A DNA stretch of 13,000 nucleotides from Methanosarcinales archaeon (GTDB lineage Archaea; Halobacteriota; Methanosarcinia; Methanosarcinales; Methanogasteraceae): NCBI GenBank assembly GCA_030594905.1, contig JAUVEF010000012.1:1-13000 (forward strand). The letters run 5' to 3'. The notes below the pieces were generated by a model. That model was given only the letters and a program-made list of their open reading frames with translations. It made no database searches and was not told the origin of the DNA. Shown one piece after another: positions 1 through 12,300 of the stretch. Made by a program: the position numbers and the translations under genes. Within the stretch, counting starts at the first letter, position 1, and every line of letters begins with the position of its first letter.

Positions 1-153
1 ATCCGGGCGAGATTGCGGCTGGCGGACCGGAAGCGCCCGGGGGGACGGTCCGGCAAAGAATGTGCGAATGGCGGACACTGGAGGAAGCCAAGCGAAAACC
101 TAATAGATGCCCCATCGATGATAATTGAGGCAAACCATGAACTGACGCCGCCA
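1..153 (+). repeat. hicB-derived hairpin repeat, copy A (cut by window edge)
   Basis: The left part of this copy lies outside the window. It opens with the CCGGGCG arm at 3-9 and the CGCCCGG arm at 34-40, separated by a 24-nt loop. It keeps the far end of the ancestral gene: in shifting frames one reads RTLEEA near 80-100 and then MIIEANHELTPP at 117-153, which is a typical HicB carboxyl end and matches the end of copy E. It is not an intact coding region, since the frame changes at least twice. It is followed after 27 bases by a copy of a second repeat family. Confidence 0.75.
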
Positions 154-180
154 CTTTACTCATCCTTTTTCTGCTATCAC

Positions 181-290
181 ATCTACCAACCCCCACCCCG
201 CGTCTGTCCGCGCTCACGTCCGGTACACCCGACCTCTGAAGCCCGCGGACGCTCCCGAACTTCATTCGGAGGGTGGCACGGCGGGGCTTC
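181..290 (+). repeat. second interspersed repeat family (R2), copy 1
   Basis: This C-rich stretch of about 110 bases matches 2258-2360 closely. Shared blocks include ATCTACCA, CACCCCGC, TCTGTCCGCGCTCA, GTCCGGTAC, CCCGCGGA and CTTCATT followed by GGGTGGCA and GGGGCTTC-like ends. The ORFs crossing it look incidental. I do not recognise a protein or RNA family. This copy sits just after hicB-derived repeat A, but copy 2 is not next to such a repeat, so the association may be chance. Confidence 0.65.
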
Positions 291-428
291 GGGAGACTGA
301 TATGATGGACGCGGTGGCAGGGTTGGTCCGCGTGGTTCACGTGTTCTTATGGGGTGGATTGGATGGCTGGCTTTCGAGTTTTTTGGGGCTCAGATAATAG
401 AAATATACGAAATCTTTTAGACCAGTAA

Positions 429-471
429 AGCTTATAATCTATTAATACATGGGGTGTGTTTACAAAAGGAG
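429..471 (+). promoter_or_regulatory. candidate TATA box and ribosome binding site of the first TA pair
   Basis: A CTTATAAT box at 431-438, preceded by a purine-rich GTAAAG, fits an archaeal BRE/TATA promoter with transcription starting near 460. AAAGGAG at 465-471 is a strong Shine-Dalgarno site 10 bases before the ATG at 482. The 300-428 stretch upstream holds no gene that I can support. Confidence 0.4.
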
Positions 472-481
472 ACTATAGATC

Positions 482-700
482 ATGGAAACCAGAGTGGCTA
501 TGGCGATGGGTATGGAAACCATGACTGTCGAACTGAAAACCAAAACCGTGGAGAAATTGAGAGTTATCGGCAAAAAAGGAGAGAGCTACGACGATACTAT
601 TCGGCATCTGATAGGGGGGGTAGACTATGAGACATTTATGCTAGAACAGTACAAGATCTTAGATGAAGAAGACGAATGGACATCTTTAGATGATTTGTGA
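482..700 (+). CDS. small antitoxin (VapB/DUF7557-like) of a RelE-type module
   Basis: The 72-residue product has a core reading TVELKTKTVEKLRVIGKKGE followed by SYDDTIRHLI. This is the pattern of short archaeal antitoxins that bind DNA through the N-terminal part and neutralise a partner toxin through the acidic tail. The acidic tail is visible here (DEEDEWTSLDDL). It overlaps the downstream toxin by one base (TGATG), the usual translational coupling of such pairs. The start at 482 is chosen for the AAAGGAG site. The ten bases at 482-491 recur at 512-521, giving a second in-frame ATG just before the conserved core, so the first ten residues may be a duplication and translation from 512 is possible. 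Family assignment is from pattern memory; the TA role is supported by the neighbour. Confidence 0.75.
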   Translation: METRVAMAMGMETMTVELKTKTVEKLRVIGKKGESYDDTIRHLIGGVDYETFMLEQYKILDEEDEWTSLDDL

Positions 701-972
701 TGTCTAAAGCTATTCTTTTATCGAAAATTGCCGGAAAACAACTTGGGTTGTTACCAGAAGATATACGAAACAAAGTTAAAAAGGCGTTATATTCCCTAAG
801 TGAGCCGGAAAATGGTGTAATGCTTGATACTAAAAAATTAAAAGGCGTCAGGGGTGGGGCGGATCTTTTTCGATTGAGAATTGGCAATTATCGTGTTGTT
901 TATTTTGAAGATGTTGATAGCTTCAGAATAATTCAGATTTTCCATCGCGGGAAGGGATACAAATGGTTATGA
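700..972 (+). CDS. RelE/ParE superfamily toxin
   Basis: The 90-residue protein starts at the ATG at 700, which overlaps the antitoxin stop; a GTG at 697 is a less likely start. The C-terminal half carries the RelE/ParE signature: LKGV..GADLFRLRIGNYRVVYF, then a hydrophobic strand (FRIIQIF) and HRGKGYKWL, where Arg and His near the end match catalytic or RNA-contact positions in RelE toxins. RelE members cleave mRNA in the ribosomal A site; ParE members poison gyrase. The sequence alone does not tell which. The length is normal for the family. It should form a complex with the product of the gene immediately upstream. Confidence 0.85.
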   Translation: MSKAILLSKIAGKQLGLLPEDIRNKVKKALYSLSEPENGVMLDTKKLKGVRGGADLFRLRIGNYRVVYFEDVDSFRIIQIFHRGKGYKWL

Positions 973-1080
973 AACTGGTTATGATGTGGCTATGACTTTC
1001 AGACTTTCACCCCACCCCCTGCTGCAATCCATCAGCACACTACCAGACCCCGCCCGCCACACCTCCGCAAACCACCACCA

Positions 1081-1279
1081 ACGACGTCCGAACCCGGGAA
1101 TCGCCACGTGATGCCAGAGTCGCACAAGCACCCACAGGAGCGATCAATCACGAACAGATCAGGGCGTAGTATCCGGGCGAGATTGCGGCTGGCGGACCGG
1201 AAGCGCCCGGGGGGACTGCCCGGCGCAAAGAATACGCGAAGGGCGGGACGCTTAACAGAAGCGCGTGAGAAGGCACAGG
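1081..1279 (+). repeat. hicB-derived hairpin repeat, copy B
   Basis: This is a full-length copy. It has the leader GACGTCCGAACCC, then an ATG at 1111 beginning MPESHKHPQERSI, which corresponds to ESQKHIQERSTI in the hicB pseudogene at 4930. The hairpin arms are CCGGGCG at 1173-1179 and CGCCCGG at 1204-1210. The segment GGGCGGGACGCTTAACAGAA near 1240-1260 reads GRTLTEAR in one frame, the HicB motif. The frame is broken, so it is not a working antitoxin. It lies about 110 bases before a second, unrelated hicB remnant. Confidence 0.78.
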
Positions 1280-1391
1280 TAGTATTCGGTCAATCCGGCA
1301 ATGCTCTTTCTCATTTTGGATCGGAAAGTTAGTTCATGAGAACATTTTTAGACCCAGAAACTCATAATATCTGATGAGAGTTGATCTGAAA

Positions 1392-1573
1392 ATGAAATTT
1401 AACGTTGTGATCGGTGAAAGGGGGCGGCGGGTGGTATGCCATCGAATACCCCCTCATCAGGCTGTATCCCCTGGGGGAAAACCGTGGCAGGCGCATTAGA
1501 AAATATAAAAGAGGCTATTGAGATCGATCTTGAACCAGAAGATGGTATAAAGAAGGTAATATTTTGCTGCTAA
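1392..1573 (+). pseudogene. hicB: hicB-family antitoxin with two frameshifts
   Basis: Reading through three frames gives MKFNVVIGER, then GGGWYAIEYP, then SSGCIPWGKTVAGALENIKE followed by AIEIDLEPEDGIKKV and a stop at 1571. This matches HicB N-terminal domains (WYV.EYP..PGC.SQGET.EEALENIKEAIE). Removing one base from the G5 run at 1420-1424 and one from the C5 run at 1449-1453 restores a single open frame of about 60 residues. So it is either freshly broken or intact with homopolymer sequencing errors. It is a different hicB lineage from the repeats. No hicA follows: the next gene is a BrnT-like toxin whose start lies inside its last codons. The short form would lack the usual C-terminal DNA-binding domain. 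Confidence 0.65.
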
Positions 1574-1857
1574 AAGAAATAATCTGGATTGATAAATTTG
1601 CTTTGAAGATACAAAGGAAACACCACGTCACAGTTGTGGAAGTTGAGGAATCTTTGCTTTCTGGAGCTATCTTCCGCCGTTCACGCCGGGGAATGGTTGA
1701 GGGAGAGGATGTTTATGTGGCTTATGGTATAACCCTGGCAGGGCGATATCTATTTACAGTCTTCATCTACAAAAGACAGAATACGGGACTTATCATATCA
1801 GCAAGAGATATGACCCTTAAAGAAAGGAGGTACTACAATGCCCGGAAGAAAAGTTGA
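1564..1857 (+). CDS. BrnT-like toxin of a type II TA module
   Basis: The 97-residue product ends with GLIISARDMTLKERRYYNARKK, the BrnT signature (IISAR.....ER..Y). BrnT has a RelE-like fold and inhibits translation by cleaving RNA. Other visible features are a K/R-rich N-terminal helix (ALKIQRKHHVT), a VEEVEE-type segment before FRRSRRG, and strands DVYVAYG and RYLFTVFIYK. The start is uncertain: TTG at 1564 follows AAGAAGG by about seven bases, and no ATG lies near the N-terminus. The gene overlaps its partner antitoxin by 20 bases. Toxin-first order is the rule for BrnTA modules. Confidence 0.78.
   Translation: MLLKEIIWIDKFALKIQRKHHVTVVEVEESLLSGAIFRRSRRGMVEGEDVYVAYGITLAGRYLFTVFIYKRQNTGLIISARDMTLKERRYYNARKKS
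1825..1830 (+). promoter_or_regulatory. strong ribosome binding site for the CopG-like antitoxin
   Basis: AGGAGG lies inside the end of the toxin gene, seven bases before the ATG at 1838. It fixes the antitoxin start and would let the antitoxin be made in excess of the toxin, which has only a TTG start and a weaker site. Confidence 0.7.
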
Positions 1858-2110
1858 AGAGATGCCTGAAGAATTCGAAACTTATGAAGATGCTGCTGAG
1901 TTTTGGGATACTCACGATAGCACAGAGTACGATGATTTGCTCGAAGATGTGGCGATTGAAGTTGATATTCAAAAAAGGCACTATTTGATCGAGATGGACG
2001 CGGATAGTTCAAAGGTGCTTCACGAAAATGCCCGGAAACAGGGAATCCCTGATAGTGTGTTTGCCAGTGAACTTCTTCAGAAGCAGCTTGTGGCGATGGG
2101 GACGTCATAA
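1838..2110 (+). CDS. CopG-like antitoxin paired with the BrnT-like toxin
   Basis: The product has 90 residues. The N-terminal part EFETYEDAAEFWDTHDSTEY is a hallmark of CopG-type antitoxins found with BrnT-like toxins. The segment VDIQKRHYLIEMDADSSKVL followed by HENARKQGIPDSVFASELLQ looks like a ribbon-helix-helix DNA-binding part (a strand, then two helices), so the protein should both bind the toxin and repress its own operon. The start is set by AGGAGG at 1825. It is co-transcribed with the overlapping toxin. The function rests on family pattern plus gene order. Confidence 0.8.
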   Translation: MPGRKVEEMPEEFETYEDAAEFWDTHDSTEYDDLLEDVAIEVDIQKRHYLIEMDADSSKVLHENARKQGIPDSVFASELLQKQLVAMGTS

Positions 2111-2257
2111 TCCTCATGCTTGATACAACAGGACATATATGCTGCGGGCGCGTGTTCTTCCCTTCAAAACGTTACTTCAACCACAACGTTCCAAATGCTG
2201 GAAATGGTAACCAAATCTGCACCACCTACACGCTTACACGCCAGCACCCGCCACCGA

Positions 2258-2360
2258 ATCTACCAGCACCCACCCCGCATCTGTCCGCGCTCAAGTCCGG
2301 TACGCCCGACCGCAATCCCGCGGATGCTCCACTTCATTGCAGGGTGGCATGGGCGGCTTC
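2258..2360 (+). repeat. second interspersed repeat family (R2), copy 2
   Basis: It matches 181-290 over about 100 bases with small indels. It lies between the converging ends of the CopG-like antitoxin and the Fic gene, and its last two bases reach the Fic stop codon. The 2111-2257 stretch before it shows no gene I can support. Confidence 0.65.
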
Positions 2361-3318
2361 ACTCCCTTCCTGCCCCCACATACCGCTCCACCGCCCGCCT
2401 CGATGAATGCCACACGCTCCCGATCTTCACCGCATCCAGAGCACCCCGCCTCGCAAGCAGGCTCAGATATTCCTGCGAATAAGGCACCCATTTCACAAGC
2501 TCTTTAAGCGGCACCAGTTCATCAGCCCCGCCGAATATGGATAGATACAACGCCAGGCTCTCATCCACCGACTTTGCAATGAAACCGGCGAAGGGCACAG
2601 GGTCTCCTGCATCCGCGGACCTCAGGCACATGTAGTATTTCCCTCTATCTTCCGTTCTTATCACCACTGGTGGATAGCCATTTGCGATCAAATACAGGTT
2701 TGCAAGTAGACGCGCTACCCTCCCGTTGCCGTCTGTGAATGGGTGAATCTCAACAAATCTGTGATGCAAGAAAGCCGCGGTCCCTATAGGCTGCATCCTG
2801 CTTTCGGCCACCCCCCGGATCAGTCCATCCATCAACCCGACCACCTTTGACCAGTCAGGCGGCGTCTTTACAGCCCCTGTTATCCTGACGTTATGGGTGC
2901 GGTATCTTCCGGCATCTTCGAGAATGCCTGCCGTTACAACCTCGTGGATCTCCTGGATCGTGACATGGTCTATCGCTCTTCTTTTCCCCGCGATAGCCTC
3001 CACAAGATCAAATGCCCTTGCGTTATTGGTTGCCTCAATGTGTTCCGCAAGCGTTTTTCCACCGATGGTTATGCCCTCTTCCAGCACAAGCTTTGTCTCA
3101 GAGAGTGTCAGGGTGTTCCCCTCTATCGCACCCGAGTGATAGGTGTGTAGCAGCCGCATCTCTTCGTGCAGTCTTTTTACGGCGCCGGCTGGGAGGGGAT
3201 GAAGCGAGTCGAGTCTCCGCATCTTCTCATATATGCGCGACAGGAGTTTTTCCTGAATCAGAGGAGTAGCAGGCATAACGGATATGTCTGGTAGGTGGGA
3301 ATATATCGGTATCGGCAT
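2359..3318 (-). CDS. Fic family protein (AMP transferase type) with C-terminal helix-turn-helix
   Basis: Fic proteins transfer AMP or related groups from nucleotides to hydroxyl groups on target proteins. Counting from the TTG at 3327, the active-site motif HPFTDGNGRVARLL starts at His195 and is complete. An N-terminal inhibitory motif, SGAIEGN at 65-71, matches the (S/T)xxxE(G/N) autoinhibitory helix of class II Fic proteins, so activity should be restrained within the protein itself. The C-terminal segment YSQEYLSLLARRGALDAVKI followed by a tryptophan resembles a winged or excisionase-like HTH common in archaeal and bacterial Fic proteins. The ATG at 3318 is preferred over the TTG at 3327; no clear ribosome site is seen for either. 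The target is unknown. No separate antitoxin neighbour is visible, in keeping with built-in inhibition. Confidence 0.9.
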   Translation of the reverse strand: MPIPIYSHLPDISVMPATPLIQEKLLSRIYEKMRRLDSLHPLPAGAVKRLHEEMRLLHTYHSGAIEGNTLTLSETKLVLEEGITIGGKTLAEHIEATNNARAFDLVEAIAGKRRAIDHVTIQEIHEVVTAGILEDAGRYRTHNVRITGAVKTPPDWSKVVGLMDGLIRGVAESRMQPIGTAAFLHHRFVEIHPFTDGNGRVARLLANLYLIANGYPPVVIRTEDRGKYYMCLRSADAGDPVPFAGFIAKSVDESLALYLSIFGGADELVPLKELVKWVPYSQEYLSLLARRGALDAVKIGSVWHSSRRAVERYVGAGRE

Positions 3319-3713
3319 GAAATTCAAGTTTTCCGATACATCAATTGATGGTGGATGCTGTTATCACTCCTGATGCAGAGTAAAATACATAGAACAACGT
3401 TATAAAGGGGATATGGCTCAAGTTCGGTCTCGCGGGTGCCACAAAGAAACGGCTCGGTAGGTATCATCAGGGAAAATAAGAACCGGGACAATCGGCTGGG
3501 TACCGGCTGAAGCGAGCGCTGATCGCAGAGACTTAACGCAGGCGAAGCACCATCGAGATGAAACCTGCAGAGAAATTTCCCGCCATGACCCGGTCTCCCG
3601 CGCTCCTCTACGCCCCCACCGCCCACCCGCAGCCCACGCCACTCCGCGGAGATCGGCGCCAGTCTCACAAGAATCGTTTTAGCGCCATCACCCAACCCCA
3701 CATCCCCCCGCCA
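3319..3713. other. gap without a supported gene; holds R3 repeat and C-rich tract
   Basis: Several ORFs cross this stretch on both strands, but none resembles a known protein. It contains the R3 peptide-level repeat (3392-3458). Between about 3590 and 3713 the plus strand is rich in C, as is the sequence just before other hicB-derived repeats. A TATAAAGG sequence near 3402 could be a promoter element but has no gene placed properly after it. Confidence 0.5.
3392..3458 (+). repeat. R3 remnant, copy 1: coding fragment shared with 8174-8246
   Basis: One frame reads NVIKGIWLKFGLAGATKKRL here and NAVIKGIMVDFGLEGVTKKR at the other copy. The DNA also matches around TTCGGTCTCG and GGTG.CAC.AAGAA.CGGC. 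The peptide is more conserved than the DNA, so this is probably the broken end of a protein gene that exists elsewhere. I do not recognise the protein. There is no start codon in frame nearby. Confidence 0.5.
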
Positions 3714-3858
3714 CCGACGTCCGAACCCGGGAATTGCCCCGCGATGCCAGAGTCACAAAAGCACCAGCAGGAGCGATCAATCACGGACAGATCCGGGCGT
3801 GATTGCGGCTGGCGGACCGGCGACGCCCGGGGGGACTGCCCGGCAAAGAATACGCGAG
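3714..3858 (+). repeat. hicB-derived hairpin repeat, copy C
   Basis: It has the leader GACGTCCGAACCC, an ATG at 3744 reading MPESQKHQQERSI, and hairpin arms at 3793-3799 and 3824-3830. Relative to copies B, E and F it lacks about 14 bases just before the first arm, and the last loop bases change from AAG to CGA, yet the stem is intact. It ends about 100 bases before the second RelE module and makes a long upstream extension of that antitoxin frame, which should not be taken as coding. Confidence 0.78.
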
Positions 3859-3958
3859 TGTGGTCTTTACGCGAGTCATCACCCCGCACAACCCGAGACT
3901 GGTGTACGAAAGTATTATTGCGGGCGAATCCCAAACGAAACTTAAAAGGAGCAAAATC

Positions 3959-4207
3959 ATGGCACCGGAAAGCGTGGAATTATCAATACCGTTCGAATCA
4001 TTGGTCGACTCTGTTACAAAGCTACATATACGGGACAAGTTCCGGCTCTGGGAGTTACTGGACGAGCAGATGGCAGGTGCTGAGGAAGAGGTGTGGGACG
4101 AAGACCCGGTTGTGCAAGCTGAAATTCGGGAAGCCCGTGCTGCATATCATGCAGGAGACTATGTAACGATCGATGAGTATCTCGCGGGGCGGCGCAAGAA
4201 AGACTGA
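3959..4207 (+). CDS. antitoxin of the second RelE-type module
   Basis: The 82-residue protein starts at the ATG at 3959, set by AAAAGGAG at 3944-3951, seven bases upstream. The frame is open further back, but that part is repeat C. The segment VDSVTKLHIRDKFRLWELLDEQM followed by an acidic stretch (EEEVWDEDP) and a tail with YVTIDEYLAGRR resembles small antitoxins found before RelE toxins in methanogens and cyanobacteria. No classic RHH or HTH is obvious by eye. The gene overlaps the toxin by one base (TGATG). The role is inferred mainly from gene order and size. Confidence 0.78.
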   Translation: MAPESVELSIPFESLVDSVTKLHIRDKFRLWELLDEQMAGAEEEVWDEDPVVQAEIREARAAYHAGDYVTIDEYLAGRRKKD

Positions 4208-4467
4208 TGCACTATCAGGTCGTGATCCCAAAGCCAGTGCAGAAGCAACTGGATGATATACCAGACGAGGTCAGTGACCGAATCATCAAGCGGATTGTGA
4301 TGTTGAAAGAGCACCCACGTCCGCGTGGGTGCATCAAACTGAAAGGATATGAAAATGAGTATCGTATCCGGATCGGTAACTATCGAATACGGTATGAGAT
4401 CCGGGATCAAGAGCTTGCCGTGATCTTGCTTCACTGTAAGCATCGGAAGGGTGTGTATCGAGGCTGA
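4207..4467 (+). CDS. relE: RelE/ParE superfamily toxin
   Basis: The 86-residue product is a textbook RelE-type sequence: HYQVVIPKPVQKQLDDIPDE at the start, LKEHPRPRG.IKLKG in the middle, then EYRIRIGNYRIRYEIRD and a last strand followed by HCKHRKGVYR. The basic residues Lys, Arg and the late HRK..Y match the mRNA-cleaving face of RelE. It overlaps its antitoxin (TGATG), so the two are translationally coupled. It is distinct in sequence from the toxin at 700-972, so the pair is not a recent duplication. Confidence 0.9.
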   Translation: MHYQVVIPKPVQKQLDDIPDEVSDRIIKRIVMLKEHPRPRGCIKLKGYENEYRIRIGNYRIRYEIRDQELAVILLHCKHRKGVYRG

Positions 4468-4631
4468 TTTATTTGATGCTTTTGTGTGATGGTGAGTCGG
4501 GAGGTTTCGTTACCGCGAATGCCTTGTGGCGGCATATTTGTATGCGGCAGCTTTGACTGTGCTCAGGTATGCTCGATTATGGGCGGGCACCGCGTTGGCA
4601 TAAGGGGGTTTTGGGCAGGGCAAAGGACATA

Positions 4632-4724
4632 ATGCAGGAGAATAATGAAGAAGGGTATGTGAAAGAATTGGTATATCTTGACACACCGATTATTTATACG
4701 CCAGAAGAGTTAATGGGGGTGTGA
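4632..4724 (+). pseudogene. short remnant ORF before an antitoxin-like gene
   Basis: Thirty codons read MQENNEEGYVKELVYLDTPI then IYTPEELMGV and a stop. The frame stays open upstream without a good start. The ending (IIYTPEEL) resembles the C-terminal part of minimal nucleotidyltransferase (MNT) proteins, but the nucleotidyltransferase active site (GSRARG and DxD) is not present, so if it is such a gene only the tail survives. The 4468-4631 stretch before it shows no gene. Assignment is weak. Confidence 0.25.
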
Positions 4725-4727
4725 ACC

Positions 4728-4877
4728 GTGTTGAAAGACCCAATTGTTCAAGAGGTCCGCAAAGCAGGCGAAGAGCTTGCAAAACAAGCAAATTATGATC
4801 TGCATGCCTTCTTTCAAAACTTGCGGAATAATGAAAAGAAACAGAATTATAAAGTGGTTTCGAGATTAAAGCAGTAG
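4728..4877 (+). CDS. short antitoxin-like protein (49 residues)
   Basis: The product reads MLKDPIVQEVRKAGEELAKQ, then ANYDLHAFFQNLRNNEKKQN and YKVVSRLKQ. This matches a widespread small family (DPIVEEVR..RE..A..FNYDLDAI...L...E) found in TA-rich regions of cyanobacteria and archaea, usually next to a putative toxin. The start is GTG at 4728 or TTG at 4731, as no ATG is available. It begins four bases after the stop of the preceding remnant ORF, as an antitoxin following a partner would. That partner seems to be reduced to a fragment. The exact function of the family is not established to my knowledge. Confidence 0.6.
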   Translation: MLKDPIVQEVRKAGEELAKQANYDLHAFFQNLRNNEKKQNYKVVSRLKQ

Positions 4878-4929
4878 GCGGCATTTTCAAGGAGGCATAC
4901 GGCAGATAATTGGGAGCTGTTCTGCAAAA

Positions 4930-5182
4930 CAGAATCACAAAAGCACATACAGGAGCGATCAACCATAAACAAATTCACAGCAGTATTCGAACGAGACTGT
5001 GACTGGTGGATCGGCTATGTCGGGGAACTGCCCGGCACAAATACGCGAAGGGCAGGACACTCCCGGAAGCACGTGAAAACCTGAGAGAAGCCGCAGAGAT
5101 GATTATCAAGGTAAACTGTGAACTGACGCGGCTTGAAATAGGGTCGGATACAATCAGAGAAGAGTTACTGGTGGCGGCATGA
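4930..5182 (+). pseudogene. hicB: hicB antitoxin pseudogene; closest copy to the ancestor of the hairpin repeats
   Basis: The first frame reads ESQKHIQERSTINKFTAVFE, then RDCDWWIGYVGELPGTNTRR. After a net +2 shift near 5050 the next frame reads GRTLPEARENLREAAEMIIK, then VNCELTRLEIGSDTIREELL and VAA, stopping at 5182. Together these are an almost complete HicB (WW.GYV.ELPG.NT.GRTLEEARENL). The start ATG seen in the repeats (MPESQKH) is absent here. The stop is directly followed by the ATG of hicA, so the operon order is hicB-hicA. The same ACGCGAAGGGC shift site occurs in repeat B, so it is not a sequencing error private to this locus. The 4878-4929 stretch before it shows nothing. Confidence 0.75.
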
Positions 5183-5395
5183 ATGAAGCGCCGCCACGCT
5201 GCTCTAACATTTGAAGCGGAACGGTTGCAGCTTTTGCGAGAAGGTGGCAAACATTCGGTTTATTTTAATCCCGTAGACCGAAGAACAGCATCCGTGCCAC
5301 GCCACACCGAAATCGCCGATAAATTGGCTCACGAGAAAGACGCGAGGGTGCAAAGGTTGGAAACCACAGAATCTATCAGAATCAGGGAAGATTAA
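5183..5395 (+). CDS. hicA: HicA toxin, apparently without an intact antitoxin
   Basis: HicA proteins are small double-stranded-RNA-binding-fold ribonucleases that cut mRNA and are held inactive by HicB. This 70-residue product begins MKRR, has the core LLREGGKHSVYFNP with the catalytic histidine at residue 24, and then RTASVPRHTEIADKLA, which matches the VPRHNEI motif. The segment after MKRR (HAALTFEAERLQ) departs from the usual helix (DLIRHLE..GC). The ATG at 5183 immediately follows the stop of hicB. Because that hicB lacks a start and has a frameshift, the toxin may be weak, silent or neutralised by a HicB made elsewhere. The family call is firm; activity is not. Confidence 0.85.
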   Translation: MKRRHAALTFEAERLQLLREGGKHSVYFNPVDRRTASVPRHTEIADKLAHEKDARVQRLETTESIRIRED

Positions 5396-5422
5396 ACCCG
5401 GACTCCGAACCAATTGGGAGAT

Positions 5423-5611
5423 ATGCCTCATCAAATACGCCCGATAATACATGCAAGAGATGACCATGAACTGTCAAAAGTGATGGTAGAAGAAGGGTCT
5501 TTCAAACATATCCGGCTCTTTTGTCAGCAGAACCGCTGGTTTTGGCAAACAGTCTTAAGTAATAGCGAGAGGATGGTGCTGTGTGCTGAATCAAAAACCA
5601 TGAAACAGTAG
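5423..5611 (+). CDS. hypothetical protein, doubtful
   Basis: The ORF gives 62 residues (MPHQIRPIIHARDDHELSKV to the end MKQ). I recognise no family, and the upstream GGGAG sits too close to the ATG to be a normal ribosome site. A TTG at 5414 is an alternative start. It could be a fortuitous ORF or debris between the hicA gene and the next promoter. Confidence 0.2.
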   Translation: MPHQIRPIIHARDDHELSKVMVEEGSFKHIRLFCQQNRWFWQTVLSNSERMVLCAESKTMKQ

Positions 5612-5652
5612 ATATTGCAGCGCTCAGGAAGACAGAGTGCCGTGAGACTGAC

Positions 5653-5661
5653 AATATAAAA
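5653..5661 (+). promoter_or_regulatory. TATA box of an apparently leaderless gene
   Basis: AATATAAAA lies about 25 bases before the ATG at 5682, where an archaeal promoter would place the transcript start at or next to the start codon. No Shine-Dalgarno site precedes that ATG, which agrees with a leaderless message. Confidence 0.5.
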
Positions 5662-5681
5662 TGTGTTAAAACATCCCGATC

Positions 5682-6011
5682 ATGACTGAAGAAAGAATCC
5701 CCTGTGAGATCATAGCGATCAACGAAGGCAAGACCTGGAATAACATAGTGGTAGAGCAGAACGCGTCAAAGAAGCGGCTCTTTTTTGGCAAGACAAAAAA
5801 AGATATGGAAATAAATGTCGGAGATACGGCATACCTCGTGGTAGATGTCATGCAGTCCGAGTTCTCCGAAACACCGCTGCGTGTGACACTGTATAACAAG
5901 GACGGAACGAAGGTCGACTGGACGATTATACAGCCGAGCCAGTTCAACATCCTGAAATCATGTGCGTGCAGTGGAGGATGCTCTGGGACCAATGGTGCAT
6001 GTGGCCTGTAA
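5682..6011 (+). CDS. hypothetical small protein with a cysteine-rich C-terminal tail
   Basis: The product has 109 residues and no signal peptide or membrane segment. The body alternates short hydrophobic strands with charged turns (CEIIAINEG, NNIVVEQ, DTAYLVVDV, LRVTLYNKDG), suggesting a small beta domain. The tail is Cys94-Ala-Cys96-Ser-Gly-Gly-Cys100 followed by Cys107, with many Gly and Ser around, which suggests metal binding, an iron-sulfur site or thiol chemistry. I do not recognise the family. A well-placed TATA box suggests its own leaderless transcript. Base composition is more even than in the surrounding GC-rich repeats, so it looks like a maintained gene. Confidence 0.7.
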   Translation: MTEERIPCEIIAINEGKTWNNIVVEQNASKKRLFFGKTKKDMEINVGDTAYLVVDVMQSEFSETPLRVTLYNKDGTKVDWTIIQPSQFNILKSCACSGGCSGTNGACGL

Positions 6012-6311
6012 TTAGATATTCTCCTGAAATGCCCCCAGCATACTTGGGTCAGATGAGGTCATAAGAGAAGATCGCAAACGGTTCCTTAGAGAGCGGGGGG
6101 TGGTTTCTGCCATGACTAAGGATTGATCGGATACTGACCATTCTCGTAAACATGGGGACTGCATGAAACCAAACTCATATGCGATAACCTGTGAAGCCAC
6201 ATAGGTCTCAACAATGTAATTTTCAGACAATAAAATCTGTAAGGACCTTAACATCCCGTCTCTGTAGCGATATACTCTGCCCCGCCCACACTCCTGCAAA
6301 CCAGCCCCGCC
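6012..6311. other. gap with a possible coding remnant
   Basis: On the plus strand, 6028-6126 is an open stretch ending SDEVIREDRKRFLRERGVVS followed by AMTKD and a stop, with no start codon in a sensible place. The charged composition is like the tail of a small antitoxin or regulator, but I cannot name it. The long minus-strand ORF across this region runs into repeat E and looks fortuitous. Nothing else is visible. Confidence 0.35.
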
Positions 6312-6562
6312 CGCCGACGTCCGAACCCATAGGAATCGCCCCGCGATGCCAGAGTCACACAAGCGCCCGCAGGAGCGACCAATCACGGACAGATCAGGGC
6401 AGCAGCATCCGGGCGGGATTGCGGCTGGCGGACCGGAAGCGCCCGGGGGGACTGCCCGGCGCAGATTAAGGGGGGCAGGACGCTTAACAGAAAGCCACAC
6501 GCGAAAACCAAAGAAGATGCCGTGGCAATGGTAATTGAGGCGAACCATGAACTGACGCCACC
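6312..6562 (+). repeat. hicB-derived hairpin repeat, copy E (most complete)
   Basis: This copy keeps both ends: the leader GACGTCCGAACCC, an ATG at 6346 (MPESHKRPQERPI), hairpin arms at 6409-6415 and 6440-6446, and the far end with ATGGTAATTGAGGCGAACCA and TGAACTGACGCCA, matching the HicB ending (M-V-I-E-A-N-H-E-L-T-P). The frame is broken several times. It lies in the space after the convergent nadA-like gene. Confidence 0.78.
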
Positions 6563-6634
6563 CTCTTGCTGCATGAGAAGTATGCGATGACTAATGTTCG
6601 CCCTTTACCATGGTGATGGGTGCGGCACCCGGGT

Positions 6635-7564
6635 TTACGACCACATTGATCTAAGCAGCTCTGCCGTCCGGTCCGCTACGACCCGGTCCACCTGCACATG
6701 AGTTCCCCCGTTTTCGAGGGCACTCAGCAGGGTGCGTAGCCGGAACACCTTAAATACGTTGCACATCAGGAAAGGACTGAGGTGGACGATGGTACGATCT
6801 GAAAATTCGTTCTGCATACGTTGGAAAAACCCGAGCTCCGTACCCAGGATGAACGTATCGATCTGCGGGTTTTCTTTGATTAATTTATGCATCTCTCCGG
6901 TGCCCATCACATGATCTGCCAGCTTGATCACCTCCATTCGCGACTCCGGATGCACCATGAGACAACTGCCAGGATAACGCTCCTTCATGGCTACCACATC
7001 TGTTACGTCGGCTGAATTGTAAACGTTGCATGTCGGGTTCTTGTCATAATTAATCATCTTGCTACCGACCTGACGTTTGGCGTCGGCGGCGCAGTTCTTC
7101 TCACCTATGAATAGAATTCGTTCATCCTTCATGCTATTGAGGGTGCTCACCACCTCGCCGGGAACGCACACCCGGTCAGCCAGTAGCTTGGCCATGAGGG
7201 GTGAGGTGGCGTAACAGAGCAGGGGTACCCCGGGGTTGGCGATCTTGAAGTCGCTTATACGCTCAAAACCCAGGTTCGGGTGGGTAGCCACAGGGCATTG
7301 CGATACTACCGGGACGACGATCTCTGTCTCTGGCATTAGGCAGGCGGTTATCTCGGCAAAGAAGTAAGGGGCGATGACAACGATCCGTTCGGCGTCTGTA
7401 CCTGCGACGACCGCCTCAAAAAATGTCCGGCTGTCGCCCAGCACATCGGCAAATTCGTGAATTTCAGCTGGTGCGTAGTGATGGGCGAAGACCGCGGTGT
7501 TGCGAGATCTCTTCAGCTCTTGGATTTTCGGCCCAATCGCTCTTAGGTCTATGGCTTCTTTCAT
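6635..7564 (-). CDS. nadA: divergent quinolinate synthase (NadA-like)
   Basis: NadA condenses iminoaspartate with dihydroxyacetone phosphate to quinolinate, the precursor of NAD, using a [4Fe-4S] cluster held by three cysteines. The product has 309 residues, a normal NadA length. Candidate ligands are Cys90 (SQCPVA), Cys179 (PTCNVY) and Cys268 (LMCNVF), spaced 89 and 89, close to the known spacing. AHHY at 27-30, GDS at 43-45, HPES at 205-208, GTG at 221-223 and GTELGF at 241-246 match conserved blocks. Differences from typical NadA are the usual YVN segment, here CYATS at 117-121, and the CxxH after the second cysteine, here Cys-x-x-Tyr. Clear AAAGGAG lies nine bases before the ATG (plus-strand 7574-7580). 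No nadB or nadC partner is seen. It could be a paralogue with another substrate. Confidence 0.85.
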   Translation of the reverse strand: MKEAIDLRAIGPKIQELKRSRNTAVFAHHYAPAEIHEFADVLGDSRTFFEAVVAGTDAERIVVIAPYFFAEITACLMPETEIVVPVVSQCPVATHPNLGFERISDFKIANPGVPLLCYATSPLMAKLLADRVCVPGEVVSTLNSMKDERILFIGEKNCAADAKRQVGSKMINYDKNPTCNVYNSADVTDVVAMKERYPGSCLMVHPESRMEVIKLADHVMGTGEMHKLIKENPQIDTFILGTELGFFQRMQNEFSDRTIVHLSPFLMCNVFKVFRLRTLLSALENGGTHVQVDRVVADRTAELLRSMWS

Positions 7565-7921
7565 TTTGTATATCTCCTTTATTTCCCCGAATTAATTTGT
7601 GCCCTCCGGCACGATAATGTGGAGGCGGTAAAGCCGACCACATTCGTCCCGCTTACACATCTGTCCAAGGACAACTCCACTCAAAGCACCACCCTCCTTG
7701 TGGGTGGACTTACACTTCCTATACTGTGTTTGTGCCATAAAGGTATATCATTTTTGATTGGGTGTGACTCTCAACTTGGCGCTGACGCTGGTGCTCAAGT
7801 GTCTCCTTTCTGGTGGGGGCCCAAGTATTCCAAGTATATTAGAAATACCGCATGTAATCGGTCTCCTTTTCCTATACTACATCTCTGGATGGGAGTATAT
7901 ACCATATCCACCCACCACCCC
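7565..7921. other. gap upstream of the nadA-like gene
   Basis: A small inverted repeat, GTGCC-CTCC-GGCAC at 7599-7612, lies about 35 bases before the nadA-like start and could be an operator or leader hairpin. A plus-strand frame from about 7764 reads VTLNLALTLVLKCLLSGGG and then further hydrophobic residues before running into repeat F. It could be a membrane-protein fragment, but it lacks a ribosome site and a defined end. I support no gene here. Confidence 0.35.
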
Positions 7922-8129
7922 GCCGCCGACGTCCGAACCCACGAATCGCTACGTGATGCAAGAGTCACAAAAGCACCAGCAGGAGCGATCAATCATGAAC
8001 AGATCAGGGCAGCAGTATCCGGGCGAGATTGCATCTGGCGGACCGGAAGCGCCCGGGGAGACTGCCGGGCGCAAAGACCCGGGACGCGTGGGGCAGGACG
8101 CTTAACAGAAAGCCACACGCGAAAACTTG
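7922..8129 (+). repeat. hicB-derived hairpin repeat, copy F
   Basis: It has the leader GACGTCCGAACCC, an ATG at 7955, and hairpin arms at 8019-8025 and 8050-8056. Two loop bases differ from the other copies (GCATCT instead of GCGGCT). The far end stops after CACACGCGAAAACTT, where the HicB ending of copies A and E is missing and the R3 remnant begins within about 45 bases. Confidence 0.78.
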
Positions 8130-8173
8130 AATCAGAGCTGGCAGAGAAGCTATCAAAAGTTGAGAAGGCTTTT

Positions 8174-8246
8174 CAGAACGCTGTAATCAAGGGGATCATG
8201 GTCGATTTCGGTCTCGAAGGTGTCACGAAGAAGCGGCCCATCAGCT
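8174..8246 (+). repeat. R3 remnant, copy 2
   Basis: One frame reads NAVIKGIMVDFGLEGVTKKR followed by PIS and a stop, paired with the copy at 3392-3458. The sequence before it (ESELAEKLSKVEKAFQ) continues the same frame and looks like a helical protein segment, so the true source gene probably encoded it too. Unknown family. The rest of 8247-8414 shows no gene. Confidence 0.5.
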
Positions 8247-8414
8247 AACGCGAGCGAAGCATCAATGAAGGGCAGGGTGTTCTGGCGGGCGGGAGACGAG
8301 AGGTCTTCTGCCTGCTGGAGGGGGGGTTTTGGGAGAGTTTATCTGGGACGAGTTCAAAGGCAGTGCGCATGGAGCGGAGAGAACTCTGTCACGATCGATA
8401 CACAGTTTTGTTAT

Positions 8415-8815
8415 GGCTCTTCGTTATTTCATGTGGGTAACTGGAAATCCAGGTGCCCCAATTGAAGATAAATCATGGTCATGAAATTCCGGATATTCCG
8501 ATAACCACGAGCACTCCTCTTTAATAACTGCACAACGCTATTAATTCCCTCTAAGATGCCATTGGTGATTCTTGAGTCAAAATAATTCAGGATACCATTC
8601 CAATGTCTCTTAACAGTCTTTGCAGCATCGATCATCGGTTGTAATCTGCTATACGTAGCCCAAAAGTACCACCGTTTAAGATACTGCTCGGCAACAACAC
8701 GTTCTTCGGTGTTCCAGAAGATTTGAAGGCTGAGCTTCAAATTGTACGCCCTAACAGTCTTTAAATTCATATCCTTGAGGCTACCAATGTCTTTTATCTC
8801 CTTATGTGATGATTC
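8415..8815 (-). mobile_element. remnant of an ISL3-type insertion sequence
   Basis: The right end (as transcribed) begins with GGCTCTTCG at 8415, the typical terminal sequence of ISL3 elements, extending as GGCTCTTCGTTATTTCATGT. The transposase part is only the C-terminal third. I find no matching GAAGAGCC end on the other side, so the element was truncated, with the break near 8815. Confidence 0.7.
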
Positions 8816-8869
8816 GATTGTTGGCGTCGGGGTATTAGCGTACCCATACAAAACAGAGAAGGGGCACAT
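8429..8869 (-). pseudogene. truncated ISL3 family transposase, C-terminal part
   Basis: The sequence from about residue 19 on reads ESSHKEIKDIGSLKDMNLKT, then AYNLKLSLQIFW, RWYFWATYSRLQP, KRHWNGILNYF, TNGILEGINS and ARGYRNIRNFMTMIYLQLG. This is the conserved DDE_Tnp_ISL3 C-terminal region. Glu107 in NGILEGINS should be the last acidic residue of the DDE triad; both aspartates and the zinc-finger N-terminus are missing, so it cannot transpose. Residues 1-18 come from unrelated flanking DNA. A full ISL3 transposase has about 400 residues, against about 128 here. Confidence 0.85.
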
Positions 8870-9307
8870 TACCGATGATCACAGTGATCGCGATCCGTAC
8901 GCTGGTCGGGATCGGGGTAAGGTTCAAGCGAAGGTAGTCTTTTGGGTTTTGCGTTCTCCGAATGGCATGATTGAAGTTCCCTGGAATACTGCCATCCGGA
9001 CGAACTGCGCAATCGTGCCTGGTGTAAATTCGCGACGTTTGTCCGAACGTATCGATTCGTGTCTGTGAGCACAGGTGGGAAGTTTCGGTGGTATGGGGGA
9101 TGCTGCTCCCAAAAATCTTGCAAATTGTCGTGAGCCATACGAAGTATGACAGACCGTTAATACAGAAACATTTAAGTTATAGTAGATTATTTGGATATGA
9201 TGTGCAGACATTGATGAAATATCACATTGCAGGTGTAATCGCATGACTGATTGTCTGTAAATCGCACATACATACAAGCTAAAACAAAAAAATATGGAGA
9301 CGGCAAT
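8870..9307. other. gap upstream of the CobN-like gene with candidate promoter
   Basis: I support no gene here. Two minus-strand ORFs and one plus-strand ORF cross it but show no family features. Just before the large gene, GAAAC followed by ATTTAAGTTATAG at about 9165-9181 could be a BRE and TATA box, giving a leader of roughly 100 bases. GGAG at 9296-9299 lies eight bases before the ATG at 9308. No cobalamin riboswitch pattern is evident. Confidence 0.4.
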
Positions 9308-12300
9308 ATGACAAATGAACGTAACAGAATACAGACTGTGCTGACGCTGGCAATCCTCGCGCTCGCCCTTACCGGAACCGCATCTGGAAACTATGGCGGT
9401 ATAGAACTTGTTGCCAACACGACCAGTGATACAAATGGGAATTTTAGTTTCACTAATATCCCCAATGGCGAGTATCGGCTGGCTTCTGTGATCCACAGCA
9501 GTGCCATGGGTGGCATGTGGCTTACCAACGTGAGTGAGTTCACAATCGTTAACGGAACACCGGTGAACGTTACTTTTGCCATGCGTAAGAACGACAGCAA
9601 TGATCATAACGCGATCCTTTCATACCTTGATCATACTACTGTTTCCGGTAGAACTGTGAGCAAGACCGGCTCCGCAAAAGTTGGTACGGATCTTGTCTTA
9701 ACTGACCGGAATGGTGAGTTCGTTGCCAACACCACCAGTAACGCTACGGGTGATTACATATTTTCCACCATTCCAAATGGCGAGTATCGGCTGGCTTCTG
9801 TTATCCACAGCAGTGCCATGGGTGGCATGTGGCTTACCAACATGAGTGAGTTCACAATCGTTAACGGAACATCAGTGAACGCTACTTTTGCCATGCGTAA
9901 GAATAACAGCAATGATCACAACGCGATCCTTTCCTACCTTGATCGTACTACGGTTTCCGGTAGAACTGTGAGCAAAACCGGTTCTGCAAAAGTTGGTACG
10001 GATCTTGTTCTGTTGAAAAAGGTGTATGGTGCAGTGGAAGAAGTGACATACTCCATACCAACTGCCAACTTCTCAGCGAATACAACTTATGGAGACTGCC
10101 CCCTGACGGTCCAATTCAGTGACTTGTCCGAAAATGCAACTTCATGGTGCTGGGATTTCGGTGACGGAACAAATTCGACAGATCAAAACCCGGTACATAC
10201 GTATGATAGTGCAGGATTCTTCGATGTAAAACTCACTGCCAGTAATCCGGAAGGTAGTGACATAGCGCGGAAGATCGATCTGATTACGAGTGACTTGCCC
10301 GGTGTTAACAGAACTCAGCAGATTCTTTTTCTTGTTATTGGCGCTGAAGAAACCTCCATGGTAAAACATGCCGTTAAGGACATGGGTATGGATGACTGGG
10401 TGGATGTGTATGGCAGTAACCGCGAAAACCGTGTGGAAATTCTCTACACACCATTTGATGGTAACATCAGTATGAGCAAGTATGACATTATTTTCATTAG
10501 CTGGAAAGGCAGCATGACCTTCCTTGGTACAAACTTAAAACCCCAGATCCATGAAATGATCAATGAAACCAATCCGGGCACCTTTGTGTATGACTGGAAC
10601 TATGATCTGGAAGATTTTTCAGGCATAAATTATGTCAGCCATACCAAACATCCGCATCTTGAAGACTACTGGCTTAAACAGTATGATAACAACATCGTTC
10701 GCCTGATCACATATCTTTCGGTGGTTGATCTTTCAGAACCTTTCGCAAATTATACTGGCGCAATCAGGATCGAAGAACCCTCCATACCACCAACCAACGG
10801 TATCGTCCATCCGGATTCCGGATATGAAATATTTGAAGATCTGGAATCTTATCTGGGGTGGTATTCGGACGACGATGGTACACACCACACCTATAACCCC
10901 GAAAACTACACGGTAGGCGTCATATTCTTTGCAGGACATGATGGCGATCTCTGTGATGGTGTTACTGAGGCACTGATAGTAAAACTTGAATCCCGTGGCA
11001 TCAATGTAATTCCTGCTTTCCGTCCAGGCATAATCTACGATGTCGATGACGCGGAAGACTTCTTTAAAGCTGGCGGTGAGTACAAAGTTAATGCTTTTAT
11101 TGACATTGGAATGGGCGTGTCAAGCATGTCTTCTTCCGTATGGCACACCGAAGCCCTTCAGGCTATGAATGTGCCCGTTATCAATGGTATCCAGTATCAG
11201 GGCACGATCGAAGAATGGGAAGAATCCGTTAGCGGACAGGACGGCAGGTTCCAGTACCAGATTCCTATAATGGAAATCGGTGGTGAAATCGAATCCATCG
11301 TTATCGGCGGGGCGGAATATGATGTAGAACTGGGTGCCTGGTCTTTCCAGCCTATCGATTACCAGATGGACTGGCTGATAAACCGGACAGTCGGCTGGAT
11401 GAATTTGCAGCGCATTGAAAACAAGGATAAGAGAGTTGCAATAATCTATTACAACCATGGAAAACAGGGTGCAATGGTGGCTGCAAATCTTGATGTTGTG
11501 CCCAGTATCCCAAACTTCATAGACGCTATGAATGAAAGCGGTTATGATCTGGATGGTATGAACCTGAACAGATCGGAGTTCCTTGAACTTGCGCTTCGGC
11601 AGGGCAGGAACATAGGAGTTTGGGCACCTGGCGAACTTGCACACATGGTTGAAAACTATGACGTGGAACTGTTGCCAGTGGAAACATATCTTGGGTGGTT
11701 TGAAGAGCTCGAACCTGCAGCACGTCAGAGTGTAATTGACACATGGGGTGAAGCGCCCGGAAAGGGAATGGTTTATGAAAACGAATCCGGTCAGTACTTT
11801 GTGTTCCCGAAGATCGAGGTTGGCAATATTCTCATTGCACCGCAGCCCCCGCGAGGTCTCACGACCAGCGAGGAAATGCTTTATCACGACCAATCAGTTC
11901 CACCATCACACAACTACATCGCATTCTATCTCTGGCTGAACCACAAGCCGGGTGAAGGTGGTCTGGATATGGATGCTATAGTTCATTTCGGAAGGCATGG
12001 CACACAGGAATGGCTACAGGGCAAAGGCGTAGGCTTGTCGGCTAAGGAATGCTGGCCTGCAATCCTTATACAGGACATGCCGGTTGTTTACCTCTATGAT
12101 GTTGGGGGTATAGGTGAAGGTATAACCGCAAAGAGGAGAGGCAATGCTGTGATGGTTGATCACCTTACCGCTCCGGTTATTAATTCCGGACTATACGGTA
12201 ATCTGACAATGCTTCATGATGCCATGCACAATTACGAGGCGGCAGAAGGTTCCCTTAAGCAAGAGTACAAGAAATCCATAATTGAGTATTATGAAGACCT

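What the first reader, a model, noticed from the sequence alone, without database searches (positions are those of the whole stretch)
1..8129. A dead hicB gene spread as a hairpin-bearing interspersed repeat
Five copies (1-153, 1081-1279, 3714-3858, 6312-6562, 7922-8129) align along their length with the hicB pseudogene at 4930-5182. All five share changes that hicB lacks, including a two-base length change near the second arm. These create a perfect stem, CCGGGCG with CGCCCGG, around a loop of exactly 24 bases. Both arms differ from the hicB sequence (TCGAACG and TATGTCGG at the matching places), so the hairpin is a derived feature. The stem is unchanged in all five copies while loop bases differ in C, E and F. 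Shared derived changes mean the amplification happened after the gene decayed. All copies are intergenic and in the same orientation, and three lie shortly upstream of TA genes. This resembles a REP or MITE-like element, or a family of structured RNAs, born from an antitoxin.
Basis: partly seen in the sequence, partly recalled or inferred. Interest (0 to 1): 0.78.

Follow-up and report, generated by a model that had tools for sequence, protein, structure and literature searches.

The report
Dead antitoxin gene became scattered repeat
In an uncultured archaeon, probably of the Methanosarcinales, a broken copy of an antitoxin gene has been multiplied into a family of non-coding repeats, several of them in front of other toxin-antitoxin genes and joined to different downstream pieces, but the hairpin that first drew attention to it is most likely a by-product of its high G+C content.

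Summary
The repeat is real. Five copies lie at about 1-153, 1079-1276, 3711-3860, 6309-6562 and 7921-8126, and descend from hicB (z 22-36 against the hicB pseudogene). They share changes that it lacks, so a decayed hicB was amplified. The same repeat turned up as 24 ORFs in other contigs; 7 of 24 are named, all archaeal. In 19 of 23 informative ORFs the old start Met reads T, and two run on to the HicB C-terminal end.

The hairpin reading is not supported. Four of five cores fold no better than shuffles; the fifth is stable through a different stem. A perfect 7-bp inverted repeat occurs in 13-23% of shuffled cores. Of 24 relatives, 3 have codons compatible with the 7-bp stem and 5 lack the second arm. 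No terminal inverted repeats or target duplications were found; variable sites fall evenly over codon positions.

New observation: "one head, several tails". The hicB-derived head is joined to several recurrent downstream segments, some leading into toxin-antitoxin genes. Best explanation: non-coding passenger DNA spread and reshuffled by recombination in a toxin-antitoxin island; the mechanism is inferred, and direct evidence of exchange between copies is only suggestive.

The parts
1..153 (+). head copy A (cut by the window edge at its 5' side); hairpin arms at 3-9 and 34-40; runs into the hicB 3' part
1079..1276 (+). head copy B; similarity to copy E extends back to 1053; arms 1173-1179 and 1204-1210
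1277..1371 (+). tail type B, shared with P0121 (probably the same locus in another assembly) and P0124
3711..3860 (+). head copy C, with a 14-nt deletion before arm 1; arms 3793-3799 and 3824-3830
3861..3957 (+). tail type C leading into the ORF before the ParE-type toxin; shared with P0133, P0136 and P0143
   Evidence: ParE_toxin match
4605..4721 (+). headless RAKDIMQ leader and short ORF; in P0138 of another contig a 95% identical segment follows a truncated head
4930..5182 (+). hicB pseudogene (start codon ATA, frameshift), closest gene-like relative of the heads in the window
5183..5395 (+). HicA-like ORF directly after the hicB pseudogene; weak match (HicA_toxin E 0.016, below cut-off), probably degenerate
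6309..6562 (+). head copy E, the longest in the window; similarity to B from 6281; arms 6409-6415 and 6440-6446
7921..8126 (+). head copy F; keeps ATG at the old HicB start (7995); arms 8019-8025 and 8050-8056
8127..8242 (+). tail type F (ESELAEKLSKVEK...TKKR), shared with six ORFs of other contigs; a second, headless piece lies at 3391-3553

Best explanation
A hicB antitoxin gene lost its function (start codon and frame) in an ancestor of several archaeal genomes. The dead gene with about 75 nt of upstream sequence (the 'head'; about 35 nt of this also aligns with the pseudogene) was multiplied as non-coding intergenic DNA. It is not maintained as a protein, and most likely not as a hairpin or RNA. 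Copies spread, and probably exchange sequence, by recombination between repeats inside an island of toxin-antitoxin modules and decayed genes, so the same head ends at different points and is joined to several recurrent tails, some of them leaders of toxin-antitoxin genes. The G+C-rich arms reflect a net A/T-to-G/C shift of the head, for which GC-biased gene conversion among copies is a possible but unproven cause. Shown: hicB descent, shared decay, presence in other assemblies, flat codon positions, ordinary folding, head-tail joints. Suggestive only: exchange between E and F. Inferred: recombination as the route of spread, and absence of function.
For: hicB similarity z 22-36 for 5 of 5 copies. 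24 relatives at E<=10 among 87 candidates (22 at E<0.01, P0143 0.023, P0144 0.38); the 7 named ones carry 7 different locus-tag prefixes. The residue at the old start Met is T in 19, A in 1, V in 1 and M in 2 of 23 informative ORFs, 1 of 24 not informative. P0131 and P0137 continue to the HicB C-terminal end. P0150, an unbroken HicB, carries the leader peptide HKHPQERSI of the repeat; P0146 and P0152 carry near versions, the other five unbroken ones do not. Variable columns by codon position in the 123-nt ORF stretch are 8/10/8. Fold z is 0.65, -0.31, -0.06 and 0.52 for A, B, C and E. Tails of the 24: type F 6, RAKDIMQ 5, type C 3, type B 2, GVLAGG 2, HicB C-terminus 2, short or unassigned 4. 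E and F: 0 of 37 mismatches in a 3' block against 16 of 131 in the 5' block, Fisher P 0.024. Heads are 59-66% G+C, pseudogene 51%, window 49%. Hand-polarised changes: 8 of 14 A/T sites to G/C, 1 of 15 G/C sites to A/T, Fisher P 0.005.
Against: No genome is held for the window, so copy number, orientation bias and insertion sites are unknown. The one genome-contig scan with the core pattern returned five single hits in bacterial records and none in archaea. The 54-nt core is unusually well conserved among copies, which could hint at selection. All five copies share one orientation (chance 1 in 16). Relatives were found as ORFs, so the sample is biased to one reading frame. Some shared tails may be one locus seen in sister strains (P0121 is 94% identical to B, its tail 100%) rather than separate copies. 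The permutation test that made E and F look strongly mosaic (24 columns, 0 of 2000, 10 pairs tested) counts columns in a stretch where A and B align poorly, so the weaker test is the fairer one. The polarity count rests on a hand alignment to proteins. P0137 keeps an open frame from head to HicB stop. F folds clearly better than shuffles (z -3.77), though by another stem.
Confidence: 0.56

Rival explanations
1. REP- or MITE-like element: the hairpin is the recognition site of a transposase that moves the element in trans.
For: Perfect 7-bp stem in 5 of 5 window copies; intergenic, dispersed; an ISL3-type transposase fragment lies at 8429-8869.
Against: Claimed stem no better than shuffles in 4 of 5 cores; a 7-bp perfect inverted repeat is expected in 13-23% of shuffled cores; 5 of 24 relatives are cut inside the loop, and four of these five continue into different sequences after the shared leader; no terminal inverted repeats of 9 nt or more on the four copies examined and no shared flank word above chance in 4 of 4 copies tested.
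Confidence: 0.11
2. Non-autonomous mobile element without hairpin dependence, with one nearly constant end (the C/A-rich 5' side) and variable 3' ends, e.g. one-ended transposition or reverse-transcribed copies of the minus strand truncated at variable points.
For: Common 5' block and several 3' break points; C/A-rich tract before the heads.
Against: Break points recur with the same partner in several contigs, which also fits duplication or recombination of composites, or one locus in sister strains; the 5' limit is not the same in all copies (B and E extend further); no enzyme identified.
Confidence: 0.17
3. Many separate hicB genes decayed independently in place.
For: TA-rich island with other decayed genes, including a second, different hicB-like remnant at 1424-1558.
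Against: Copies share the lost start (B, C, E), insertions and substitutions, and so do relatives; no match to the HicA-like ORF elsewhere in the self-comparison of the window.
Confidence: 0.04
4. The head encodes a new reframed protein (MPESHK..RSGQQYPGEIAAGG..), kept by selection.
For: The frame is open in many relatives and P0137 is open from head to HicB stop.
Against: Relatives were found by their ORFs; in the window two of the four copies with this part break the frame (B by 1 nt, C by 14 nt); variable sites are evenly spread over codon positions.
Confidence: 0.05
5. A family of structured leader RNAs regulating the downstream TA operons.
For: Same orientation as, and upstream of, TA genes for A, B and C.
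Against: No shared fold better than shuffles in 4 of 5 cores and no covariation, no Rfam match; E and F are not followed by a recognised TA pair in the window.
Confidence: 0.06

Closest known systems
REP / REPIN / BIME elements with RAYT transposases (PMC2817692, outline with abstract; PMC3733652, passages)
   Same: Short intergenic repeat family, G+C-rich here, with an inverted repeat; occurs in mosaic combinations with other segments.
   Different: REPs are 20-40 bp with a compact tagged stem-loop and often in dimers; here the unit is about 150-250 bp, gene-derived, the inverted repeat is not conserved across relatives, and the five copies share one orientation.
MITEs (non-autonomous IS derivatives; recalled)
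   Same: Non-coding, dispersed, a few hundred bp.
   Different: No terminal inverted repeats or target duplications found on the copies examined; derived from an antitoxin gene, not from a transposon.
HicAB type II toxin-antitoxin modules (PMC2701414, passages)
   Same: The head is hicB by descent, and lies among TA modules.
   Different: Start codon and frame lost, no partner hicA seen beside the five copies, repeated.
Integron cassette arrays with attC sites (recalled)
   Same: One repeated sequence preceding different small, often TA, genes.
   Different: Likeness of layout only; no integrase among the window proteins scanned with Pfam, and attC structure was not searched for by a tool.

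Membership tests
REP elements | stable short palindrome with short loop | tested here: not met
   Claimed stem: fold z near 0 in 4 of 5 cores, 24-nt loop; F is stable through another stem
REP elements | unit of 20-40 bp, often as inverted dimers | tested here: not met
   Homology extends 150-250 bp; 5 of 5 copies in one orientation, single
REP elements | associated RAYT transposase in the genome | not testable with these tools
   No genome held; the only transposase match among the window proteins scanned is ISL3-type
MITE | terminal inverted repeats | tested here: not met
   Regions around B, C, E and F: no inverted pair of 9 nt or more on a copy; the single palindrome found (6601-6620) lies outside copy E; copy A not tested
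MITE | target-site duplication | tested here: inconclusive
   Best shared flank words 3-5 nt, reached by 188-499 of 500 shuffles in 4 of 4 copies; exact ends unknown
structured RNA family | conserved structure with covariation | tested here: not met
   0 of 17 predicted pairs with changes on both sides (5 sequences, few changes); relatives break the stem without compensation or lack arm 2
HicB antitoxin | sequence descent from hicB | tested here: met
HicB antitoxin | intact translated antitoxin gene | tested here: not met
   Old start reads T in 19 of 23 relatives and ACG in copies B, C and E; reading frame shifted

The most novel reading that the evidence does not exclude
The hicB-derived head is a portable recombination handle: a dead antitoxin gene that now serves as a common upstream block by which different toxin-antitoxin modules and their leaders are exchanged between loci and genomes of Methanosarcinales-type archaea, an integron-like shuffling system without an integrase.
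Probability: 0.11. Interest if true: 0.75.

Novelty: new variant of a known kind. Interest (0 to 1): 0.42.

Why it matters
The abstract of PMC2817692 calls the origins of REP repeats unknown. Here the parent gene of an interspersed repeat can be named, unbroken relatives exist, and intermediate forms (frameshifted hicB, head with HicB C-terminus, truncated heads) are visible. If heads help reshuffle toxin-antitoxin modules, that would give a direct example of how such islands grow in uncultured archaea. Of eight paper searches, seven bear on this; none of the titles and abstract starts listed describes a hicB-derived repeat family. The lists were capped (20 of 66; 12 of 20), and only open-licence papers are held.

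Tried and rejected
The window's own genome could not be searched. The pattern scan of genome contigs gave five single hits, in a Planctomycetota, a Hyphomicrobiales, an Alphaproteobacteria, a Stenotrophomonas and a Chloroflexi record; I took them as chance without examining them. Viral contigs: five scans; three patterns gave 0 matches, and 26 and 74 pattern matches were all unconfirmed by tblastn. Phages: no match; plasmids: four records with 9-16% coverage at E 0.8, rejected as chance. tblastn of P0126 on plasmids: no match. Identity of tail F (P0126): no significant Pfam or NCBIfam match (best E 0.07) and none in PADLOC. HicA-like ORF: no PDB match. Considered and rejected: CGTC-tagged REP (a CGTC lies in the 5' block, but stem 8-9 bp and loop 4-5 of that family do not fit; PMC3733652 passages). 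GC-biased gene conversion stays a suggestion: the Haloferax paper (PMC8223754 passages) cites proposals of both GC and AT bias and finds GC content may not be crucial there.
Full report
What is there. The window carries five copies of one repeat and one hicB pseudogene, all on the + strand. A profile made from the five copies finds these six places and no other at E<=1. Each copy aligns to the pseudogene far above shuffled controls (scores 68-100, largest shuffle score 32, z 21.7-35.8). In B, C, E and F the aligned stretch begins about 35 nt upstream of the old start codon; copy A is cut by the window edge. In A and E it continues to within some 50 nt of the hicB stop. The heads themselves begin about 75 nt upstream of the old start. 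The claimed arms and 24-nt loop exist in all five copies.

Descent and order of events. A protein search with three open frames of the repeat found 24 relatives at E<=10 among 87 candidates, 22 of them at E<0.01. Seven of 24 carry an organism name: four Methanosarcinales archaeon, two Euryarchaeota archaeon, one Candidatus Methanogaster, with seven different locus-tag prefixes. A search with the open 3' part of the pseudogene found 13 HicB-type proteins. Eight of these (P0146, P0150, P0152-P0157) read through the HicB N-terminal region without a break; five (P0145, P0147, P0148, P0149, P0151) do not (read as frameshifted forms by hand). P0150 carries the upstream peptide HKHPQERSI of the repeat, P0146 and P0152 near versions; the other five unbroken ones do not. 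P0131 and P0137 pass from a repeat-type 5' part to the HicB C-terminal end. At the old start Met, 19 of 23 informative relatives have T, 1 A, 1 V and 2 M; in the window B, C and E have ACG and F keeps ATG. Shared loss of the start and shared insertions mean that a dead copy was amplified. The lines are not cleanly tree-like: the pseudogene at 4930 shares some derived letters with the heads, and P0137 lacks a frameshift seen in others (read by hand).

The hairpin. Folding of the 60-nt cores as RNA gives z 0.65, -0.31, -0.06, 0.52 and -3.77 for A, B, C, E and F. A and C form the claimed stem in the best structure; in B, E and F the best structure is another. F is stable through GCGCCCGG at 8049-8056 with CCGGGCGC at 8065-8072. 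Between 13% and 23% of shuffled cores (500 each) contain a perfect 7-bp inverted repeat. The stem shows 0 of 14 variable columns, the loop 6 of 24, the flank 4 of 16 (P 0.035-0.049), a weak signal in favour of the stem. RNAalifold does return the claimed stem as consensus, but none of its 17 pairs has changes on both sides and the stem pairs do not vary. Among the 24 relatives, judged from residues (by hand; arm codons by script, where the hit for P0141 is a false match): 3 are compatible with the 7-bp stem (P0124, P0127, P0131); 13 have A where the seventh pair needs G (list confirmed) and P0121 has A or C there; P0129 and P0142 are changed at other pairs; 5 (P0135, P0138-P0141) are cut inside the loop and have no second arm. 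Third codon positions cannot be judged this way, so a 6-bp stem may persist in many. The perfect 7-bp hairpin is thus a feature of the window copies, not of the family.

Coding or not. In the longest shared open frame the variable columns fall 8, 10 and 8 on codon positions 1, 2 and 3 (of 123 nt). This is no sign of protein-level selection.

Base composition. Heads are 59-66% G+C, the pseudogene 51%, the window 49%. Using HicB proteins to set direction by hand, 8 of 14 A/T sites became G/C and 1 of 15 G/C sites became A/T in most or all copies (Tyr codon left out; Fisher P 0.005). The arms arose within this shift. GC-biased gene conversion between copies is one candidate cause; it was not tested here.

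One head, several tails. Downstream of the head the 24 relatives fall into type F (6), RAKDIMQ (5), type C (3), type B (2), GVLAGG (2), HicB C-terminus (2) and short or unassigned (4). Window copies F, C and B carry types F, C and B. P0121 is probably locus B itself in another assembly, so some of this recurrence is one locus seen twice. The RAKDIMQ segment is in the window at 4605-4721 without a head, while in P0138 a 95% identical segment follows a truncated head. After the shared RAKDIMQ leader P0135, P0138, P0139 and P0140 continue differently, so the composite leader itself recurs. GVLAGG matches window 8255-8335 only weakly (E 0.002-0.02). Exchange between copies: E and F are identical over 24 consecutive polymorphic columns (0 of 2000 permutations, 10 pairs tested; A-B 0.035, B-C 0.0055, B-E 0.0065, C-F 0.0275, five others above 0.07). 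That stretch is where A and B align poorly, and a direct comparison is weaker: 0 of 37 mismatches against 16 of 131, Fisher P 0.024. I count it as suggestive. No terminal inverted repeats or target duplications were found on the four copies examined.

Setting. Beside the heads the window holds DUF7557-type and ParE-like ORFs at 482-972 (both just under Pfam's cut-offs), BrnT with a CopG antitoxin at 1564-2110, Fic at 2359-3327, a ParE-type toxin at 4207-4467 with an ORF before it, NadA at 6635-7564 and an ISL3 transposase fragment at 8429-8869. The window is probably from a Methanosarcinales relative (names among Fic and repeat matches); the species is not established.

Verdict. The hairpin-element interpretation is not supported. 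I rate it a new variant of a known kind (interspersed intergenic repeat), with moderate interest because its parent gene and joints to TA modules are visible.

Noticed in passing
window 1424-1558 (start near 1391): Remnant of a second, different hicB-like gene (GKTVAGALENIKEAIEID; HicB_lk_antitox E 0.013, below cut-off), between copy B and the BrnT toxin gene.
   Followed up: partly
window 181-290 and 2258-2360: Another GC-rich intergenic repeat pair (84% over 110 nt), preceded by a C/A-rich tract like the heads.
   Followed up: no
window 3391-3453 and 8175-8237: A second repeated segment (tail F: DFGLEG.TKKR), with and without a head; no significant family match in Pfam, NCBIfam or PADLOC.
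   Followed up: partly
window 8429-8869: ISL3-type transposase fragment on the minus strand (DDE_Tnp_ISL3, E 5e-33).
   Followed up: no
window 9410-10008: Internal duplication (287 nt, 88%) in the N-terminal part of the large ORF at 9251-13000, which looks CobN-like by eye (recalled, not searched).
   Followed up: no
window 2359-3327: Fic protein with best PADLOC match SoFic (E 3e-30) and a 97% identical relative P0001 in another contig.
   Followed up: partly
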